Part shown: positions 31,245 to 39,233 of the stretch, one piece after another | How positions within the stretch are numbered: the stretch's first letter is position 1 | How the letters are laid out: every line of letters starts with the position of its first letter | Assembly: GCA_003003725.1 (NCBI GenBank) | Contig: PVWI01000017.1 | Span: 1 to 39,249, forward strand | Direction: 5' to 3' | DNA from: a filamentous cyanobacterium Phorm 6 | GTDB taxonomy: Bacteria > Cyanobacteriota > Cyanobacteriia > Cyanobacteriales > Microcoleaceae | DNA: 39,249 nt | Translations under genes and position numbers: made by a program | The notes under the pieces: generated by a model | Database searches by the model: none | Seen by the model: the letters and a program-made list of their open reading frames with translations, nothing else | Told to the model about the DNA's origin: nothing

Positions 31245-31880
31245 CTAGCTTGGCTCAGTTGGAGGCAAACCGGCTCGAAAAATCTGCTCGACAGTCAACC
31301 TCAATTCTGGAAAAGCCAGTGACTTAACTATGTCATCTCCCTGAAACTGGTTGATTTGATATTCCCCGTCAACCAACTGGTAAACCGAGATAGTAGGTTG
31401 TTTCGGATTGCCAATGAAGCGTCTGCCGCCCAAAGCAGCATAATCTACAACCCAATATTCCGGGATACCCAGTCTTTCATAATCAGCTACTTTAACCAGG
31501 TAATCATCTTGCCAGTTCGTACTGACTACTTCTACAGCCAGTCGCACCGAAGACCCCATCGTGATGATAGATTCTTTTTTCCAGCGCGGCTCGTTTGCAA
31601 GTGCGGTTCTGTCTAGGACTATTACGTCTGGCTGATAACCTGCCTCGTCACGGACGGGTTTAAGTAGGCAGTCACCAGGGACGAAGTAAGGCAATTGCAG
31701 TCGCCTGATTTCAAAATTGATCTCACTGGAGATGAAACCCATAACTTCCGAATGGTCGCCGGTTCCTAAAGGCATTTCAACAATTACTCCATTGTGTAGT
31801 TCGTACTTGTGGACAGAGTTCTCTGGATACCAGGCAACGAACTCATCAAACGTGATTGTTTTGGATATGGTTTGGATCAT
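31245..31880 (-). CDS. Uma2 family (DUF820) PD-(D/E)XK nuclease-fold protein
   Basis: This 211-residue protein has core residues Asp85 (QPDVIVLD), Glu117 (AVEVVSTNW) and Lys130, then PEYWVVDY. It is the closest relative in this window of the gene at 2817-3434, sharing EVVSTNW, EYW, NPKQPT and the QIF-AG end. GAGGAA lies 8 bases before the ATG. The 127-bp gap to the antitoxin gene contains direct repeats of a TATCCTTTTGATACC-like unit. Confidence 0.86.
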   Translation of the reverse strand: MIQTISKTITFDEFVAWYPENSVHKYELHNGVIVEMPLGTGDHSEVMGFISSEINFEIRRLQLPYFVPGDCLLKPVRDEAGYQPDVIVLDRTALANEPRWKKESIITMGSSVRLAVEVVSTNWQDDYLVKVADYERLGIPEYWVVDYAALGGRRFIGNPKQPTISVYQLVDGEYQINQFQGDDIVKSLAFPELRLTVEQIFRAGLPPTEPS

Positions 31881-32116: not shown

Positions 32117-32695
32117 TTAGGCTGGAAATACCAAAGACAAATCCAGAGACAAATCGGAAAAACCCGGAATTACGATTGTCTCATTTTGCAAAACAACTCG
32201 TTTGACTCGATAATTGAAATCCCCTTGTCTTTCTTGATAAGGTTCGCTGTGCATTTCCAGTTGACTACCGACTAAATTAAATATCCAATAATTAGTAATC
32301 CCAGCTTCAGCATAGAGAGATAACTTAGTTCTTTGATCGTACTTTAAAGTAGAATCAGAAACCTCAATTACCAACAAGATATCCGCAGGTTCCGGGTGAG
32401 AAGATAAATAATTATCAGAACGATTGCGGGCGATAACCACATCAGGTTCTGGTTCGCTATCTGTAGTAGATAAAATTATCGGCTCTTGTACGCGCAAATG
32501 AGCAAGTCTTCCGAGTAAAATGACTAATTCCCGAAGTAAAAGACTGTTACAAACAGAGTGAAACCTACCTTTAGCAGCCATTTTGATAATTTCTCCGCGA
32601 ATCAATTCAACTCGCTCATCGGGAGCGAAAAATTCCAGTTCTCCCAAACGGTGATATTCTGCGATCGAGAATCTTTTCGCGGTGGCACTATTCAT
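32117..32695 (-). CDS. Uma2 family (DUF820) PD-(D/E)XK nuclease-fold protein
   Basis: This 192-residue protein has Asp85 (EPDVVIAR), Glu111 (LLVIEVSDSTL) and Lys124 in YDQRTKLSLYAEAG, then NYWIFNL. It belongs to a different Uma2 subgroup from the 31245 gene (S-D-S-T-L and short C-terminus). It is thus the fourth and most divergent Uma2 in the window. The function is unproven. Confidence 0.85.
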   Translation of the reverse strand: MNSATAKRFSIAEYHRLGELEFFAPDERVELIRGEIIKMAAKGRFHSVCNSLLLRELVILLGRLAHLRVQEPIILSTTDSEPEPDVVIARNRSDNYLSSHPEPADILLVIEVSDSTLKYDQRTKLSLYAEAGITNYWIFNLVGSQLEMHSEPYQERQGDFNYRVKRVVLQNETIVIPGFSDLSLDLSLVFPA

Positions 32696-33349: not shown

Positions 33350-33580
33350 AGTGTTTCTAGTTTAGATTTTAGGTTTTAGATTTTAGTTTTTTGTTGGTGA
33401 GAAGGCAAAAGTCAGAAAGCCGAAACATCTCATCTGAATCTCAAGTGCAAAAACATACAGGTTCGTCGTGCTGGCTGGACAATTCCTAGCTTCTGCCGAA
33501 TGCGGAATGACTTTAAATTGCTGGCTAATGCCTTCAACCTTCTATCTTTTACCTTCTTTCTTCGATAATCTTAGGAGAAA

Positions 33581-33772
33581 TTAAACTACCAAAAAGTTTA
33601 AAACACCCACTGCAATAACCAGCAAAAACCAGAGACCAGAACCAGCATAAATCAGCGTTTTAGACTGATTCCAGTTTTGGGGAGAGGCATAGGCAACTGG
33701 CACGCCAACAACCATCACAAAAGACAGTAGCACGAGACCGAGTAAAACCACTTGAAACAGAATTGATAACAT
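33581..33772 (-). CDS. psbZ: Photosystem II protein PsbZ (Ycf9)
   Basis: This 63-residue protein has two transmembrane helices (about 4-24 and 40-61) joined by a loop with [10 protein letters not shown], typical of PsbZ. It is a small peripheral subunit of the photosystem II core in the thylakoid membrane that helps photosystem II-antenna interaction. AGGAG lies 5 bases before the ATG, an ideal site. It precedes ribH on the same strand with a 231-bp gap. Confidence 0.95.
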
Positions 33773-33802
33773 CTTTTCTCCTTTCGATATGACGGTGGAT
33801 TG

Positions 33803-34006
33803 ATGAAAATTGTCACTCCCCAGCGTGAATGTGTGGGGATTCTAGAGTTTTTGAAAGTCTTGCAACGATCAATCGGGAGATTATCGGTTTATAAAATTCG
33901 ACTCGCCCGTGCAAATTCTCAGTTGCGCAAACAGGCGTTAGCGGCTCTTGAGATTTTAATCAATTTTATCATTGTTCGCTACTGCACAGAAAACTGGAAA
34001 GGTTAA
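33803..34006 (+). CDS. Small hypothetical protein, divergent from psbZ
   Basis: An open frame of 67 codons begins at ATG 33803, 30 bases from the psbZ start on the other strand. It is Leu/Ala/Arg-rich and mostly helical in character ([23 protein letters not shown]), with no recognisable family. No ribosome-binding site precedes it and it covers the likely psbZ promoter, so it could be a chance frame. Confidence 0.3.
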
Positions 34007-34053
34007 GTTACAGCCCAAAGCCGTGCCAACTTAAGGTCAAACCATCAGTCCGA

Positions 34054-34071
34054 CAGGGACTTCAGTCCCTG
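34054..34071 (-). other. Right-end hairpin of the IS200/IS605 element (likely omega-RNA 3' stem)
   Basis: CAGGGACT and AGTCCCTG are perfect complements around a TC centre. On the tnpB strand the stem lies about 200 bases after the tnpB stop, where the guide (omega) RNA scaffold of IS200/IS605 TnpB systems normally ends. The scaffold itself, about 34072-34300, is inferred by position only. Confidence 0.4.
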
Positions 34072-34272
34072 GCGGTCTTTCGAGCTAAGCTGAAACCAAT
34101 AGTTAAACCCTAATCGCCACACATGGAATGCAGCAATCGGTTTCTAAGCTACCTCATCTTCAGCCGACGTTTTGGCTGAGCCGGAGCAGGGATGTGCAAC
34201 CCAATGTAAGCCCCGACAGCAACCTTGGTCAGATCGCCGAACATGGGGCGGGTGCTGGGGTCATTGACACTC

Positions 34273-35602
34273 TCAGGGCTGAAGCCACTGAGATTCTGCG
34301 GACAGAGCGGATTTGGGTAACATCCAAATTCTAACTCTCGCTACGGTCGTCAAGCACCGTCTACCCAGTCGGTCAAGGTTTACACCCAACTTACTGGCTA
34401 CTTTTCTCAGGATATTGGCGGAACCATTTAAGTCTGCATTCATCACTGTTCCATCGACAGACCGATACAATCCACGCTTAATTCGCTTTCCAGATGCTTT
34501 CCACCCTTCCGGTTTTTCACCATATTTGGGCAGGGAGTCTCCATCTAAAAAACTAGCTTTGGACGTATACGCTTCTTCGGTTTCTGTAAACTTAATACCG
34601 TGCAAGTCACACAGTTGATTTAATCGGTCTTTCAGCTTTCCCAAAGGCATTTGAACAAACTTTTGATTGTTTTTTTTGCCCATATTGACATGGGATTTGA
34701 AACCTTGATTCCAACCACAAATAATATTCCCGACCCTGTATTTCAAGCAATGGCTGACAATCAACTTCGCAGCCTTATTGATGCCATCACGCATTTGGTG
34801 ATTGCGTTTGCGAGTTACGCGGTCTAGCCAATTATCCCAATAGCCTTCAGGCTTTCCTTCTTTTCTGGTTGCGACTTTTTTATTCCACAATTGATTCATC
34901 GCTTTCATGGCACGAGCATCAATTAAGAAGGAGTTTCCTAGTGTATCGACACAAGCTGCTAAATTGTCAGCAGTCCCCAAGTCAATTGATAATGCTTGGC
35001 CAATATCCAGATTATGTTGTTCTTTTTCAACCTCGTAGGATATCTCAAGGTAAAAAACTCCATTCTTAGGGAGAATCGTAAACTCTTTCACCAAGAGAAA
35101 AATCAACATTTGACGACATAGGCAGAAAGAATTCGGAAACTCCAAACCATCGCTTTACCGTCAATCCCAACGAGAATCTCAACTGATTGCCGATAAGTTT
35201 AGGCCTTAAACCTCCAGAATTAGGATAAGCTACTTTGAACAACTTAGACCCTTTCAGGTATCCCGGCGGCTTGGGTTTAAAATGCAATTGACCTTTGAGA
35301 TACAAATCTCTTAATTCTTTGAAAGATTTAAAAGCTTCTGTGACTGACATCAATGTTTGCTGCATTGGTGTTGATGGCAAGGACTTAGCAACCATTGACT
35401 TTGAAATTGATGGTTCAAAGGACAAGTCAAACTTTCCAGTCAACATTTTTCCTGTTTTAAAAAAAGTCTGACGAGCCAAATAAACACCACTGTTATATAG
35501 CTTGCCTGATTGTTGACAGAGATACTCCAACAACGCTTTAAGTTCCTGATTGGGCGACAGCAATACTTGCTGAACTCCCATTGCTTTTTTGGTTTTAGTC
35601 AC
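34273..35602 (-). pseudogene. tnpB: RNA-guided nuclease TnpB, disrupted by a +1 frameshift
   Basis: Two overlapping frames together give a full TnpB. The first (start 35602 GTG or, more likely, 35581 ATG) encodes the N-terminal part up to SNVDFSL. The second continues from VKEFTILPKNGVFY to the end at 34273. Deleting one base of the CC pair at 35091-35092 (GG on the coding strand) would restore S-L-V-K-E continuity, so a single-base insertion explains the break. RuvC residues are all kept: Asp in SIDLGTADN, Glu in TETEEAYTSKAS, Asp in MNADLNG. The zinc-ribbon cysteines of classical TnpB are absent between the last two, as in a common cyanobacterial subfamily. A sequencing error is possible. 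Confidence 0.85.
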
Positions 35603-35683
35603 CTCTATTTTCCCGAAGATTGGTTGATTTGTCTAGCTGAGGCGACTATAGTGGATACGTCAAGCTATATCAACAAAATATTT

Positions 35684-36091
35684 ATGTTGCCACTACCTGA
35701 ATACAAAACCCACAACCACGTCAAGTTCTTACTTAACTACCACTTCGTCTTTATCCCTAAGCGCCGCAAGAAAGTTCTAATCGGGAATGTGGCAACTAGA
35801 ACCCGCCAAATATTTCTGGAACTGTCAATTGAAAAAGGTTGGGACATTCTGGCGCTAGAAGTAGCGCCAGACCATGTACATCTGTTTGTAGCTGTTAAAC
35901 CAACGGATACCCCTGCGTTAGTCGTTAAATTATTTAAGGGTCGTTCTAGCCGTTATTTGCGGGAAGAGTTCCCGCAACTAAAAAAGCTGCCATCTTTATG
36001 GACGAGCAGCTATTTTGTGAGTACGGCAGGTAATATTAGTAGTGAAGTGGTAAAAAAATATATAGAAGATCCACATCACTCGGCCAACTAA
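35684..36091 (+). CDS. tnpA: IS200/IS605 family Y1 HUH transposase TnpA
   Basis: From the ATG at 35684, 135 residues cover a complete TnpA: HVKFLLNYHFVFIPKRRK at the N-terminus, the HUH motif DHVHLFV at about 63-69, and the catalytic Tyr in SSYFVSTAGN at about 109-118. It cuts and joins single-stranded DNA at hairpins at the element ends. The frame is intact, so the element could still move even though tnpB is broken. The open frame continues upstream of 35684 but opposes tnpB, so that extension is not used. Confidence 0.9.
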   Translation: MLPLPEYKTHNHVKFLLNYHFVFIPKRRKKVLIGNVATRTRQIFLELSIEKGWDILALEVAPDHVHLFVAVKPTDTPALVVKLFKGRSSRYLREEFPQLKKLPSLWTSSYFVSTAGNISSEVVKKYIEDPHHSAN

Positions 36092-36169
36092 AGAAAGAAC
36101 ACTCTTGACTGAAGTCCCCCGCGCCGCTTCCCTCTCAGGACTAAAGTCTCGCTCGTTTCCCGCATCCCG

Positions 36170-36191
36170 CATTAATTCTTATGAATTAATG
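36170..36191 (+). other. Perfect AT-rich hairpin near the IS left end
   Basis: CATTAATTC and GAATTAATG form a 9-bp stem with a 4-base loop, about 80 bases after the tnpA stop. It may be part of the IS end recognised by TnpA or simply an intergenic palindrome. Confidence 0.4.
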
Positions 36192-36197
36192 AATCAA

Positions 36198-36223
36198 CGC
36201 CTAGAGAATACTCTAGGTGTTTC
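36198..36223 (+). terminator. Intrinsic terminator candidate downstream of tnpA
   Basis: CGCCTAGAG, loop AATA, CTCTAGGTG form a near-perfect 9-bp stem followed by TTTCTTT. It lies just before the next gene on the same strand (start 36282) and would separate IS transcription from it. Confidence 0.55.
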
Positions 36224-36281
36224 TTTGTATAAGACTTTTATACCCTTAACGTGCGAAGTCTATAGAAATCTTGAGAAGTAA

Positions 36282-39233
36282 ATGAAAATCTTTAAAACTC
36301 TTTACAGCCCGATCGCCCGATCGCGTATCCGAGCACCAGAAATTGCTACTGTGGGAGTGAGAGATGCGAGATTTTCGGCTATGGACTTAGTTTTGTGCCA
36401 CACAACAGCAGATTTTGACAGCTTGGGCGCGGCGGTGGGACTTTGCGTGCTGTACCCCGGTAGCAGAATTGTGCTGACTGGCGGTTGTCACCCGACGGTG
36501 CGAGATTTTTTGGCGCTACACCGCGACGAATATCCGCTGATTGAACGTCGATCGGTCAATCCGCAACAAATTCGATCTATCAGTATAGTAGATGCGTCAC
36601 AGCGCGATCGACTAGGAAAAGCCGCCGAATGGCTAGACTTGCCACATATCAAGCAAATAGCCGTTTTCGACCACCACCTGCAAGCCGATTTAGACATCCC
36701 CGCCACACTCACTCAGATAGAAGCAGTCGGAGCAACCACCACATTAATTGTCGAAAAACTGCGCGAAAAACTCAAAAATGCAGCAGAAAATGGCGATACA
36801 GTATCGCGCCTGCTACCTTCAGAAGCCACAGTCATGGCCCTGGGTATCCACGTCGATACAGGTTCCCTCACCTTTGAGGGCGCAACCGCGCGAGATGCAA
36901 TGGCTTTGGCATGGTTAATGGAACAAGGAGCAAGTTTGGGGGTAATCGCTGAATATGTAGAACCCGGTTTGTCTCCGCAATTGCAGGATTTGCTGCAAGA
37001 ATCGCTCAAGAATTTGCGATCGGAAACCTTGCATGGCTATACAGTAGCTTCAGTATTGCTATCTACTGACGACTATGTTCCCGGACTTTCTTCCCTAACT
37101 TCCCGCTTGCTCGATTTGACTGAAACCGATGCTCTACTTTTAGGCAATGTTTATAACTTTAGCGAAAACGACAGCAACATCGCTGAATCGATAGTTTCCA
37201 ACCGCTTAGCTATTATCGGTCGATCGCGCATCGAAGGCACAAACCTCAGCGAATTATTTAAACCCCTCGGTGGCGGAGGCCACGCCCGCGCCGCATCCCT
37301 CGCTACACGGGATGTTGATCCGCTGCTGACTTTGAATCAATTAGCCGACCAACTCAAAGCTCAAATCCCCCATCCTCCAACCGCCCGCGAATTAATGTCA
37401 TCCCCAGTGCGGAGTATTCGCCCGGAAACTTCGGTGGGAGAGGCTCACCGTATCCTCCTACGCTACGGACATTCGGGGCTTTCCGTGGTCGATGCGGGCG
37501 ATCGGCTGGCCGGCATTATCTCGCGCCGCGACATTGACATTGCCTTGCACCACGGTTTCAGTCACGCCCCAGTTAAGGGTTACATGACTCCGCAGCTCAA
37601 AACCATTGGCCCGGATACCTTGCTGCCAGAAATTGAAGCTTTAATGGTGACTTATGATATCGGGCGTTTGCCAGTATTGGAAAACAATCAACTGGTGGGA
37701 ATTGTGACTCGCACTGATGTTTTGCGGGAATTGCACCAGCAAAAAGCGCGAGATAGCGGAAGTAATACTGAGTTGTCTAATTGTCCCATGCCCGAATCGG
37801 TTGAGCAGTTGTTGCGATCGGGCATTAGTAGCGAATTATGGCAATTATTGTCGATCGCAGCCAACATTGCCCAAAAACGCGGCTGGCAACTTTATATTGT
37901 CGGTGGAGCAGTCCGAGATTTACTCTTAGCCACGGATGATAAACTGGCACTCACAGATATTGATTTGGTAGTCGATGGCAACTGCGGTACCGACGATTCC
38001 GGTGCGGGAGTAGCATTAGCCTCAGCGCTGCAAAAGCTTTACCCAGACTCGCGTTTAGACGTTCACGGTCAATTTCAAACCGCCGCGCTGTTGTGGCACA
38101 AAGACTCTGCTTTCGGCTCCCTGTGGCTGGATATCGCTACGGCTCGTACTGAATTTTATCCTTATCCGGCTGCAAATCCTGAAGTTGAAGCGAGTTCGAT
38201 TCGTCAAGATTTGTACCGCAGAGATTTTACAATTAATGCGCTGGCTGTGCGGTTGGGTGTTCCTCGCAGCGGTGAATTGTTAGATTTTTTTGGCGGTTTG
38301 CTAGACTTGGAAGCGCGGCAAATTCGAGTTTTGCACGCCAATAGTTTTATTGAAGATCCGACGCGGATTTATCGGGCTGTGCGGTTTGCGGTGCGGCTGG
38401 GATTTTCCATTGAGTCGCAGACTGAAGGATACATCCGCAACGCTACCGAAAGTGGGATTTATTACCGCATTCAAGGGGAAAACGGCCGAGCTCCGGCTTT
38501 GGAAACTCGCCTGAAAAGTGAGTTAAAATACATTTTGCAAGCTCCTTATTGGCAGGCTGCTTTGCAAATGCTGGGAGATTTGCAGGCTTTGCGCTGTATT
38601 CATCCTACTTTGGATTTGGATCGCGAATTGTGGCGCAGGTTGCGTTTACTCGATCGATGTTTGAATGGCAGGAAGTTCGGCAACGAGCAAAGTACGGGAT
38701 TTAACGGATTGATGTTGAAAGAAGCAACTATTGCCAATTCCCAGTTACAAATTGCCAATTCCCAATTCCCAGTTATCAATATTCCTGATTGGCTGATGCG
38801 GCTGGAAGTTTTGATCGCTTATTTAGCACCGGAATATCGGGTTAAGGTAGCGGGAAATGTTCAGTTACCTGCTGACAGTATTAAACGGCTGGAAGTTTTG
38901 GAAGCTGGAAATAACGAATTAGCAGAGAATTTGCCGAAGTGTAAGTTACCGAGTCAATTGGTGTTTCTGTTGAGGAATTATGAGTTGCCGCTGTTAATTG
39001 CGATCGCCCTACAAAGCCCCCGAAGTATCCGTCGCCAGATTTGGGAATACCTCACCAAGTGGGCAAATGTTGAGTCGCCTTTAAACGGCAACGACTTGAA
39101 GGCATTGGGTTACAAGCCGGGGCCTGGGTTTAAACGGATGTTGGATGATTTGTTGGCGGCTGCGTTGGATGGCGATTTGGGCGATCGGGCTACTGCGATC
39201 TCTTTCTTAGCACAACATTATCCTCAATCTTAG
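36282..39233 (+). CDS. DHH-CBS-CBS-tRNA nucleotidyltransferase fusion (CCA/A-adding type)
   Basis: This 983-residue fusion starts with a DHH phosphoesterase domain (DFD 44-46, DHH 130-132) and a DHHA1 part with GGGGHARAASLA at 330-341. Two CBS domains follow (about 367-425 and 432-490). A class II nucleotidyltransferase head comes next, with GGAVRD at 541-546 and the catalytic Asp pair in TDIDLVV (559 and 561), then RNA-binding helices. Cyanobacterial proteins of this layout add A (or CCA) to tRNA 3' ends; in Synechocystis a split CC-adding and A-adding pair is known. A second in-frame ATG at 36381 (MDLVLCHTTADFDS) matches the usual family start, so the first 33 residues may not be translated. 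Heptad-repeat DNA is embedded at 38730-38783. Confidence 0.85.
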   Translation: MKIFKTLYSPIARSRIRAPEIATVGVRDARFSAMDLVLCHTTADFDSLGAAVGLCVLYPGSRIVLTGGCHPTVRDFLALHRDEYPLIERRSVNPQQIRSISIVDASQRDRLGKAAEWLDLPHIKQIAVFDHHLQADLDIPATLTQIEAVGATTTLIVEKLREKLKNAAENGDTVSRLLPSEATVMALGIHVDTGSLTFEGATARDAMALAWLMEQGASLGVIAEYVEPGLSPQLQDLLQESLKNLRSETLHGYTVASVLLSTDDYVPGLSSLTSRLLDLTETDALLLGNVYNFSENDSNIAESIVSNRLAIIGRSRIEGTNLSELFKPLGGGGHARAASLATRDVDPLLTLNQLADQLKAQIPHPPTARELMSSPVRSIRPETSVGEAHRILLRYGHSGLSVVDAGDRLAGIISRRDIDIALHHGFSHAPVKGYMTPQLKTIGPDTLLPEIEALMVTYDIGRLPVLENNQLVGIVTRTDVLRELHQQKARDSGSNTELSNCPMPESVEQLLRSGISSELWQLLSIAANIAQKRGWQLYIVGGAVRDLLLATDDKLALTDIDLVVDGNCGTDDSGAGVALASALQKLYPDSRLDVHGQFQTAALLWHKDSAFGSLWLDIATARTEFYPYPAANPEVEASSIRQDLYRRDFTINALAVRLGVPRSGELLDFFGGLLDLEARQIRVLHANSFIEDPTRIYRAVRFAVRLGFSIESQTEGYIRNATESGIYYRIQGENGRAPALETRLKSELKYILQAPYWQAALQMLGDLQALRCIHPTLDLDRELWRRLRLLDRCLNGRKFGNEQSTGFNGLMLKEATIANSQLQIANSQFPVINIPDWLMRLEVLIAYLAPEYRVKVAGNVQLPADSIKRLEVLEAGNNELAENLPKCKLPSQLVFLLRNYELPLLIAIALQSPRSIRRQIWEYLTKWANVESPLNGNDLKALGYKPGPGFKRMLDDLLAAALDGDLGDRATAISFLAQHYPQS
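38730..38783 (+). repeat. ATTGCCA/ATTCCCA heptad repeat inside a coding sequence
   Basis: About seven 7-bp units of the AATTGCC/AATTCCC/AGTTACA type lie within the C-terminal RNA-binding region of the nucleotidyltransferase. They encode IANSQLQIANSQFPVIN at about residue 817-833, keeping the frame. The same heptads otherwise occur only between genes in this window. Confidence 0.8.

What the first reader, a model, noticed from the sequence alone, without database searches (positions are those of the whole stretch)
34054..35602. TnpB with one-base frameshift but complete catalytic residues, lacking the zinc ribbon, next to a likely omega-RNA
Removing one G of the pair at 35091-35092 restores a full TnpB with D-E-D RuvC residues. 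Cysteines of the usual zinc ribbon are missing between the E and last D motifs. Its 3' region to the hairpin at 34054-34071 is where the guide RNA scaffold should be. Either the nuclease is newly inactivated, the reads contain an error at a short homopolymer, or ribosomes slip there. The cysteine-poor subfamily is less studied as RNA-guided nucleases.
Basis: partly seen in the sequence, partly recalled or inferred. Interest (0 to 1): 0.5.

Follow-up and report, generated by a model that had tools for sequence, protein, structure and literature searches.

The report
Broken TnpB gene in cyanobacterial insertion sequence
This is one copy of a common cyanobacterial jumping gene whose RNA-guided DNA-cutting enzyme has been split by one extra base, while its transposase and its likely guide-RNA segment still look intact; it is mostly ordinary.

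Summary
The broken TnpB is real: two overlapping minus-strand ORFs (35066-35602 and 34273-35145), with the D-E-D residues in the second and no zinc-ribbon cysteines. The element runs from 36180 (left end, after a TCAT target) to 34264 (right end, ...GTGTCAA). The hairpin at 34054-34071 is about 200 bp outside it and belongs to a separate small dispersed repeat. Of 74 distinct relatives whose match covers the break, all 74 stay in one frame, so this is decay of one copy (or, less likely, a sequence error), not programmed slippage. Absence of the zinc ribbon is a trait of the subgroup: 0 of 61 relatives with a usable frame have it, and 7 of 8 further relatives picked from plasmids and phages also lack it. 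The last ~100-150 nt of the element has an RNA-like structure with compensatory changes across 54 sequences; it overlaps the tnpB 3' end and sits at the right end, as an omega-RNA should. tnpA (35684-36091, divergent) looks intact. Best reading: a TnpA-competent element with an inactivated zinc-ribbon-less TnpB and a leftover omega-RNA. New member of a known kind.

The parts
34264..36180 (-). IS200/IS605-type element (1917 bp, read on the tnpB strand); left end at the high coordinate, right end at 34264
   Evidence: DNA matches to relatives start at about 36184-36187 and stop at 34263-34264 with unrelated flanks
36181..36184 (-). TCAT target motif abutting the left end (TAM candidate)
   Evidence: TCAT in 23 of 24 distinct left-end junctions, window included, CCAT in 1 (anchor chosen as the nearest [TC]CAT)
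36107..36180 (-). left end (LE) with subterminal hairpin
   Evidence: conserved in relatives, including those without tnpA
35684..36091 (+). tnpA, Y1 (HUH) transposase, 135 aa, HVH motif, apparently intact
   Evidence: Pfam Y1_Tnp 5.9e-36, profile 3-120/121; NCBIfam transpos_IS200 3.7e-43
35066..35602 (-). tnpB, upstream ORF (N-terminal part), 178 aa, in frame with relatives to about residue 169
   Evidence: 92% identical to L056 and L075 over residues 1-169; NCBIfam guided_TnpB 4.4e-11 but 42.7 bits, below the whole-protein cut-off of 100; no Pfam match
34273..35145 (-). tnpB, downstream ORF (RuvC, TNB position, C-terminal tail); D-E-D present, zinc ribbon absent; stop codon lies inside the right-end hairpin
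   Evidence: OrfB_IS605 1.4e-12, Cas12f1-like_TNB 26.4 bits just over its cut-off of 26.3; guided_TnpB 110.3 bits, cut-off 100
35091..35098 (-). frame break: one extra base relative to relatives; exact base not determinable by alignment
   Evidence: 74 of 74 distinct relatives keep one frame here
34264..34413 (-). likely omega-RNA scaffold (best-supported part 34264-34360), overlapping the tnpB 3' end
   Evidence: 54-sequence alignment; 93.5% of cells paired, 99 double-sided changes against 25.3 in shuffles; model R1 112.8 bits here, window being one of its 42 training rows
34272..34292 (-). right-end (RE) hairpin CTCAG...CTGAG, followed by AGTGTCAA
34248..34263 (-). 16 nt of flanking DNA that would be the guide
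   Evidence: position inferred from the ISDra2 precedent (PMC8612924 passages); no transcript data
   Evidence: similar stretches at six other places in the genome; inverted repeat 34047-34061/34064-34078

Best explanation
A cyanobacterial IS200/IS605-type insertion sequence with divergent tnpA and tnpB. In intact relatives, TnpA (a Y1 transposase) would excise and insert the element next to TCAT. TnpB, guided by an RNA made from the 3' end of tnpB and the right end plus about 16 nt of flanking DNA, would cut the empty donor site (TCAT plus guide) and so favour retention of the element; the element's own junction reads TCAA plus guide and would be spared. In the window copy one extra base has split tnpB, so no full TnpB should be made. 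tnpA, both ends and the RNA scaffold look intact. The lack of the zinc ribbon is a trait of this TnpB subgroup and not damage. Shown by computation: element ends, frame break, absence of the ribbon in the relatives examined, covarying structure, fold relationship. Inferred: transcription, guide use, TCAT as TAM, loss of nuclease activity.
For: Element ends and TCAT/TCAA. Same frame on both sides of the break in 74 of 74 distinct relatives covering it; in 72 the matched stretch is also free of stops. Pairwise dN/dS of window versus L075 is 0.09 and 0.06 for the two parts (this averages both lineages). Covarying structure. The predicted structure of the intact relative L075 (mean pLDDT 77.7) matches ISDra2 TnpB (Z 21.6, 3.6 A over 328 residues), tied with Cas12f1 chains at Z 21.5 and 21.3. 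tnpA complete.
Against: No transcript or protein data. No Rfam family matched the region. Helix 5 of the RNA is also the DNA hairpin that TnpA would bind, so its covariation need not be RNA-level; a +1 slide of the structure still shows 10 pairs and 39 cells with double changes, against 14 and 99. The TNB stretch of the model has low confidence (pLDDT under 50 at 344-358 and 366-368). No empty site was found: flank 34090-34263 was found in full only in the window's own genome among 291. A sequence error at the break is not excluded.
Confidence: 0.75

Rival explanations
1. The extra base is a sequencing or assembly error and the living cell carries an intact tnpB; the rest of the explanation stands.
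For: Both halves are otherwise well conserved and free of other breaks: away from the out-of-frame ends, the departures at conserved columns are one P-to-S shortly before the break and one I-to-V. Pairwise dN/dS is low. The genome is a 526-contig draft.
Against: The site differs from the relatives aligned by substitutions as well as by length, and the extra base is not in a long homopolymer.
Confidence: 0.18
2. Programmed +1 ribosomal frameshifting makes full TnpB from the two ORFs.
For: The two ORFs overlap by 80 nt in the right relative frame.
Against: 74 of 74 distinct relatives covering the site use one frame, and the extra base is absent from the 15 relatives aligned.
Confidence: 0.02
3. 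The leftover RNA acts in trans with another TnpB of the same genome, as an orphan guide or regulator.
For: The scaffold looks intact here (112.8 bits). Three other zinc-ribbon-less TnpBs with open frames of 423-437 aa exist in the genome.
Against: Those proteins are only 36-39% identical. No other strong copy of this scaffold was found in the genome (next best 34.1 bits; 150 of 2386 first-look candidates were scored), so their own guide RNAs probably differ.
Confidence: 0.04

Closest known systems
ISDra2 (Deinococcus radiodurans) tnpA-tnpB element and its TnpB
   Same: Y1 TnpA plus TnpB with D-E-D RuvC; guide RNA from the tnpB 3' end and right end in ISDra2 (PMC8612924 passages); top structural match by Z (8exa, Z 21.6, tied with Cas12f1 chains)
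   Different: Target here TCAT rather than TTGAT; no CCCC zinc finger (ISDra2 has C331, C334, C351, C354; PMC10097598 passages); 15% identity over the aligned fold; tnpB broken in this copy
Other zinc-ribbon-less TnpB family proteins, e.g. in Methanohalobium, Finegoldia, Vibrio breoganii and Alkalihalophilus plasmids and in Nodularia phage 2AV2
   Same: Same kind of E-to-D segment (RGLY/RGLF/RGVY...AD-N) with no CxxC pair; the four plasmid ones named here are annotated as RNA-guided endonuclease TnpB family protein
   Different: 40-52% identical over the RuvC part; their guide RNAs were not examined here
Cas12f1 (AsCas12f and relatives)
   Same: Same overall fold; best Foldseek E-values (8.5e-17); the only solved relatives by sequence profile at E up to 0.001 (7 sequences)
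   Different: CRISPR-associated effector whose TNB holds a CxxC...CxxC zinc finger (PMC10097598 passage)
tnpB-only elements (IS1341 type, named in PMC3627910 passages)
   Same: Many relatives here have ends and tnpB but no tnpA inside: 14 of 21 distinct loci with both ends located
   Different: The window copy retains tnpA

Membership tests
IS200/IS605-type insertion sequence | Y1 (HUH) TnpA transposase | tested here: met
   Y1_Tnp 5.9e-36; NF033573 3.7e-43
IS200/IS605-type insertion sequence | subterminal hairpins and a fixed short target/cleavage motif at each end | tested here: met
   hairpins at LE and RE; TCAT in 23 of 24 distinct left ends, TCAA in 57 of 57 distinct right ends that could be located
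IS200/IS605-type insertion sequence | empty target site in a relative | tested here: inconclusive
   flank 34090-34263 matched in 2 of 291 genomes, its own and one over only 24 nt
TnpB (RNA-guided endonuclease) | family profile above curated cut-off | tested here: met
   NF040570 110.3 bits, cut-off 100, downstream ORF alone
TnpB (RNA-guided endonuclease) | RuvC D-E-D | tested here: met
TnpB (RNA-guided endonuclease) | C4 zinc ribbon (in the 2013 consensus motif, PMC3627910; a 2023 paper says 'many' TnpBs and Fanzors have it, PMC10711439, so not strictly defining) | tested here: not met
   0 of 61 relatives and not the window
TnpB (RNA-guided endonuclease) | fold of TnpB/Cas12f | tested here: met
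   model of intact relative L075, Z 21.6 to ISDra2 TnpB; the window protein itself was not modelled
TnpB (RNA-guided endonuclease) | guide RNA ending at the transposon right end | tested here: inconclusive
   structure conserved with compensatory changes; no transcript data
TnpB (RNA-guided endonuclease) | continuous reading frame in this copy | tested here: not met
TnpB (RNA-guided endonuclease) | guided DNA cleavage | not testable with these tools
   needs biochemistry
programmed frameshift gene | split frame conserved in relatives | tested here: not met
   0 of 74 distinct relatives covering the point change frame there

The most novel reading that the evidence does not exclude
A large subgroup of TnpB, seen here in cyanobacteria, other bacteria, archaea and phages, works as an RNA-guided nuclease without any zinc ribbon, using a metal-free replacement (YTSKASFLDGDxLPxYGEKPxGWKASGKRxxRGLYxS in the cyanobacterial branch) in the TNB position, with a TCAT TAM and an omega-RNA lying largely inside the coding end of tnpB. 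The window copy shows the guide RNA outliving its nuclease.
Probability: 0.5. Interest if true: 0.4.

Novelty: new member of a known kind. Interest (0 to 1): 0.25.

Why it matters
The copy itself is an ordinary decayed accessory gene. The useful by-product is a TnpB subgroup with clear ends, a likely TAM (TCAT) and a covarying omega-RNA candidate. It would let one test directly whether TnpB needs its zinc ribbon. In the PDB copy used, no chain matched the window's downstream ORF at E up to 0.001, and the subgroup profile matched only Cas12f-type chains (7 sequences).

Tried and rejected
Guide RNA ending at hairpin 34054-34071: rejected, because it lies outside the element in another repeat.

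The third-frame tail downstream of the right end (SPESVNDPSTRPM...), which I first took for a displaced TnpB C-terminus: rejected. Among the loci held at that point it occurs only in the window's own copies, the repeated 34-35 nt part is the shared right end, and the rest is nearly unique flank.

Programmed frameshifting: rejected. Rfam families: no match at E up to 5 over 33400-36700. Further copies in the same genome: none of this subgroup found (one search scored all 13 candidates; searches scored 40 of 65 and 150 of 2386). Empty site of this insertion: not found. Several relatives (e.g. G024, G012, G027) join query 457 to 2743 (window 34016 to 36302), so they lack about 369 bp around the element as well.

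Seven literature searches ran on TnpB with zinc-finger loss, omega-RNA, TAM or frameshift (one search returned none, one search listed 25 of 50). I saw no paper on zinc-ribbon-less TnpB among the titles and abstract openings listed. The library is open-licence only, so this is not evidence of absence in print. Passages only were read from PMC10711439, PMC3627910, PMC10097598, PMC11043419, PMC9956272 and PMC8612924.

Limits of the samples: the genome-contig search kept the best 80 of 136 relatives; the genus search scored 10 candidates per genome and did not list all matches; right and left ends were counted only where a DNA match to the window reached them, which favours similar ends; the RNA model used 42 of the 54 aligned sequences, chosen by hand; the protein alignment used 48 of the 61 relatives.

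Not done: a search of this genome for other tnpA copies (one search failed on a wrong frame and was not repeated); a phylogenetic tree of TnpB; use of sequencing reads.

Full report
What is there. On the minus strand of the window two ORFs overlap by 80 nt: 35066-35602 (178 aa) and 34273-35145 (290 aa). The second matches OrfB_IS605 and, just over its cut-off, the Cas12f1-like TNB domain in Pfam, and passes the NCBIfam cut-off for RNA-guided endonuclease TnpB (110.3 bits, cut-off 100). The first matches the start of the same NCBIfam model (42.7 bits, below the whole-protein cut-off) and no Pfam family. On the plus strand 35684-36091 encodes a complete Y1 transposase, TnpA. The neighbours look like host genes: psbZ-like Ycf9, lumazine synthase, two Uma2 genes, and a protein with a poly(A)-polymerase head and CBS domains.

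The element's ends. A genus-wide DNA search (29 genomes, 10 candidates scored in each) showed that a unit from about 34264 to 36186 recurs in other genomes. Comparison with 94 other loci (81 distinct) fixes the ends. The right end stops at 34264 with GTGTCAA, and all 57 distinct right ends that could be located, window included, read TCAA, followed by DNA with no consensus. The left end starts after TCAT in 23 of 24 distinct junctions, window included, and after CCAT in one (the anchor was chosen as the nearest [TC]CAT, so this count leans towards that motif, though the unselected list shows it at a near-constant offset). It is the centre of a separate small repeat with similar stretches at six other places in the genome.

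The break. Aligned with 15 relatives, the window has one extra base in a short stretch at about 35091-35098. In 74 of 74 distinct relatives whose match covers this point the frame is the same on both sides; in 72 of them no stop interrupts the matched stretch, and the other two (L060, L128) have a stop within the upstream part. Seven further distinct loci did not cover the point well enough to count, and one of these (L138) changes frame, apparently at a different place. Apart from the break the window protein is well kept: pairwise dN/dS against L075 is 0.09 and 0.06 for the two parts. At conserved alignment columns 9 of 144 window residues differ, of which seven lie in the out-of-frame ends of the two ORFs and two are true changes, a P-to-S shortly before the break and an I-to-V. 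Recent loss in this one copy is the simplest reading. A sequence error cannot be excluded without reads. Slippage is very unlikely.

No zinc ribbon. The segment between the catalytic E and the last D reads EAYTSKASFLDGDSLPKYGEKPEGWKASGKRIKRGLYRSVDGTVMNADLN, with no cysteine. None of 61 distinct relatives with open frames of 400 aa or more has a CxxC pair there; five have one isolated CxxC elsewhere. In the window's own genome 4 of the 30 TnpB-like loci examined (of 33 matches) have this type, the window included, and the other three have open frames of 423-437 aa; of the rest, some carry full or variant ribbons, two have another cysteine-poor segment (L048, L050), and several are cut short. 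Seven of eight relatives fetched from plasmids and a phage (archaea, Bacillota, Vibrio, cyanobacteria, Nodularia phage) lack it too; the eighth, from Thermus, has a CxxC...CxC ribbon. These eight were picked by hand from 81 plasmid and 39 phage records with a match. So the absence is a trait of a widespread subgroup, several members of which are already annotated as RNA-guided endonuclease TnpB family protein, and not damage to this copy. The 2013 consensus motif includes a C4 zinc finger (PMC3627910, passages); a 2023 paper says 'many' TnpBs and Fanzors have one (PMC10711439, passages); the ISDra2 structure shows four zinc-binding cysteines (PMC10097598, passages).

Fold. The AlphaFold2 model of the intact relative L075 (50 alignment rows: 48 of the 61 relatives plus the two window pieces) has mean pLDDT 77.7 and pTM 0.69, with pLDDT under 50 at 1-3, 300-316, 344-358, 366-368 and 429-443. 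It matches AsCas12f (Foldseek E 8.5e-17) and ISDra2 TnpB (VIA-align Z 21.6, 3.6 A over 328 residues, tied with Cas12f1 chains at 21.5 and 21.3). The low-confidence TNB stretch means the model does not tell what replaces the ribbon.

The guide RNA. I aligned the last 150 nt of 54 distinct right ends (of 57 listed, L137, L138 and L149 were dropped as rearranged or divergent upstream). A five-helix structure that I wrote by hand after seeing the alignment pairs in 93.5% of cells (shuffles 87.3, s.d. 0.4), with 14 pairs showing changes on both sides (shuffles 7.4) and 99 double-changed cells (shuffles 25.3); 0 of 500 shuffles reached any of the five measures. Sliding the partners by 1-3 columns drops pairing to 31.5-47.9%; the +1 slide still shows 10 pairs and 39 cells with double changes. 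RNAalifold on its own found 18 pairs, 8 with double changes. Helix 2 (ACGGT/ACCGT, with ACGTT/AACGT, ACGAT/ATCGT and GCGGT/ACCGC) lies in coding sequence away from the end hairpin and supports RNA-level constraint. Helix 5 is the right-end hairpin and may be kept as DNA for TnpA. Helix 1 has alternatives. In the window all five helices can form, helix 1 with one mismatch, and the tnpB stop codon lies inside the end hairpin. A covariance model (42 of the 54 sequences) finds this copy at 112.8 bits and nothing above 34.1 bits elsewhere in the genome among the 150 of 2386 candidates scored. By the ISDra2 precedent (PMC8612924, passages) the guide would be the 16 nt at 34263-34248.

How it most likely works (inferred). 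TnpA moves the element to sites after TCAT. In intact relatives TnpB with its right-end RNA would cut the resealed donor site (TCAT plus guide), favouring return of the element, as proposed for ISDra2 (PMC8612924, passages); its own junction, TCAA plus guide, would be spared. In this copy TnpB should not be made, so the element keeps mobility in principle but not the retention function. Fourteen of 21 distinct relatives with both ends located carry tnpB but no tnpA inside, so the family also travels in non-autonomous form.

Judgement. Real but ordinary: a decayed member of a known kind, in a subgroup (zinc-ribbon-less TnpB) that seems little studied. The literature searches I ran (open-licence library only) showed no paper on that subgroup among the titles and abstract openings listed.

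Noticed in passing
window 34023-34098: Small dispersed repeat with a central hairpin (34047-34061/34064-34078) and imperfect ends of the type GTGTCAACTTA...TAAGTTGACAC; similar stretches at six other places in the genome. Looks like a miniature inverted-repeat element.
   Followed up: partly
window 34017-34263 and 36181-36302: About 369 bp around the element are absent from relatives such as G024, which join window 34016 to 36302; origin unknown, and 34090-34263 was found in full only in this genome among 291 searched.
   Followed up: partly
L075:2318-2425: A second right end (77% identical) sits directly upstream of the tnpB copy at 2426, suggesting tandem or nested insertions of the same family.
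   Followed up: no
L008:44-78, L009:44-77, L010:1501-1534, L012:1501-1535, L017:1501-1534, L054:1501-1527: Right ends of the same type in the window's genome without the full omega-RNA scaffold; no tnpB seen beside L012, L017 and L054, while L008-L010 lie at contig ends. Possibly tnpB-less elements moved in trans.
   Followed up: partly
L068, L115, L117 (right ends): Omega-RNA copies that lack the third hairpin altogether, suggesting that the hairpin is dispensable.
   Followed up: no
L168:1021-2274 (Nodularia phage 2AV2): A zinc-ribbon-less TnpB (52% identical) in a cyanophage, near a KilA-N gene and DNA polymerase A.
   Followed up: no
window 31245-31880 and 32117-32695: Two neighbouring Uma2-family genes.
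   Followed up: no
window 36282-39233: 983-aa protein with a poly(A)-polymerase head domain and two CBS stretches; the N-terminal DHH match is just below Pfam's cut-off (27.6 versus 28.1 bits).
   Followed up: no
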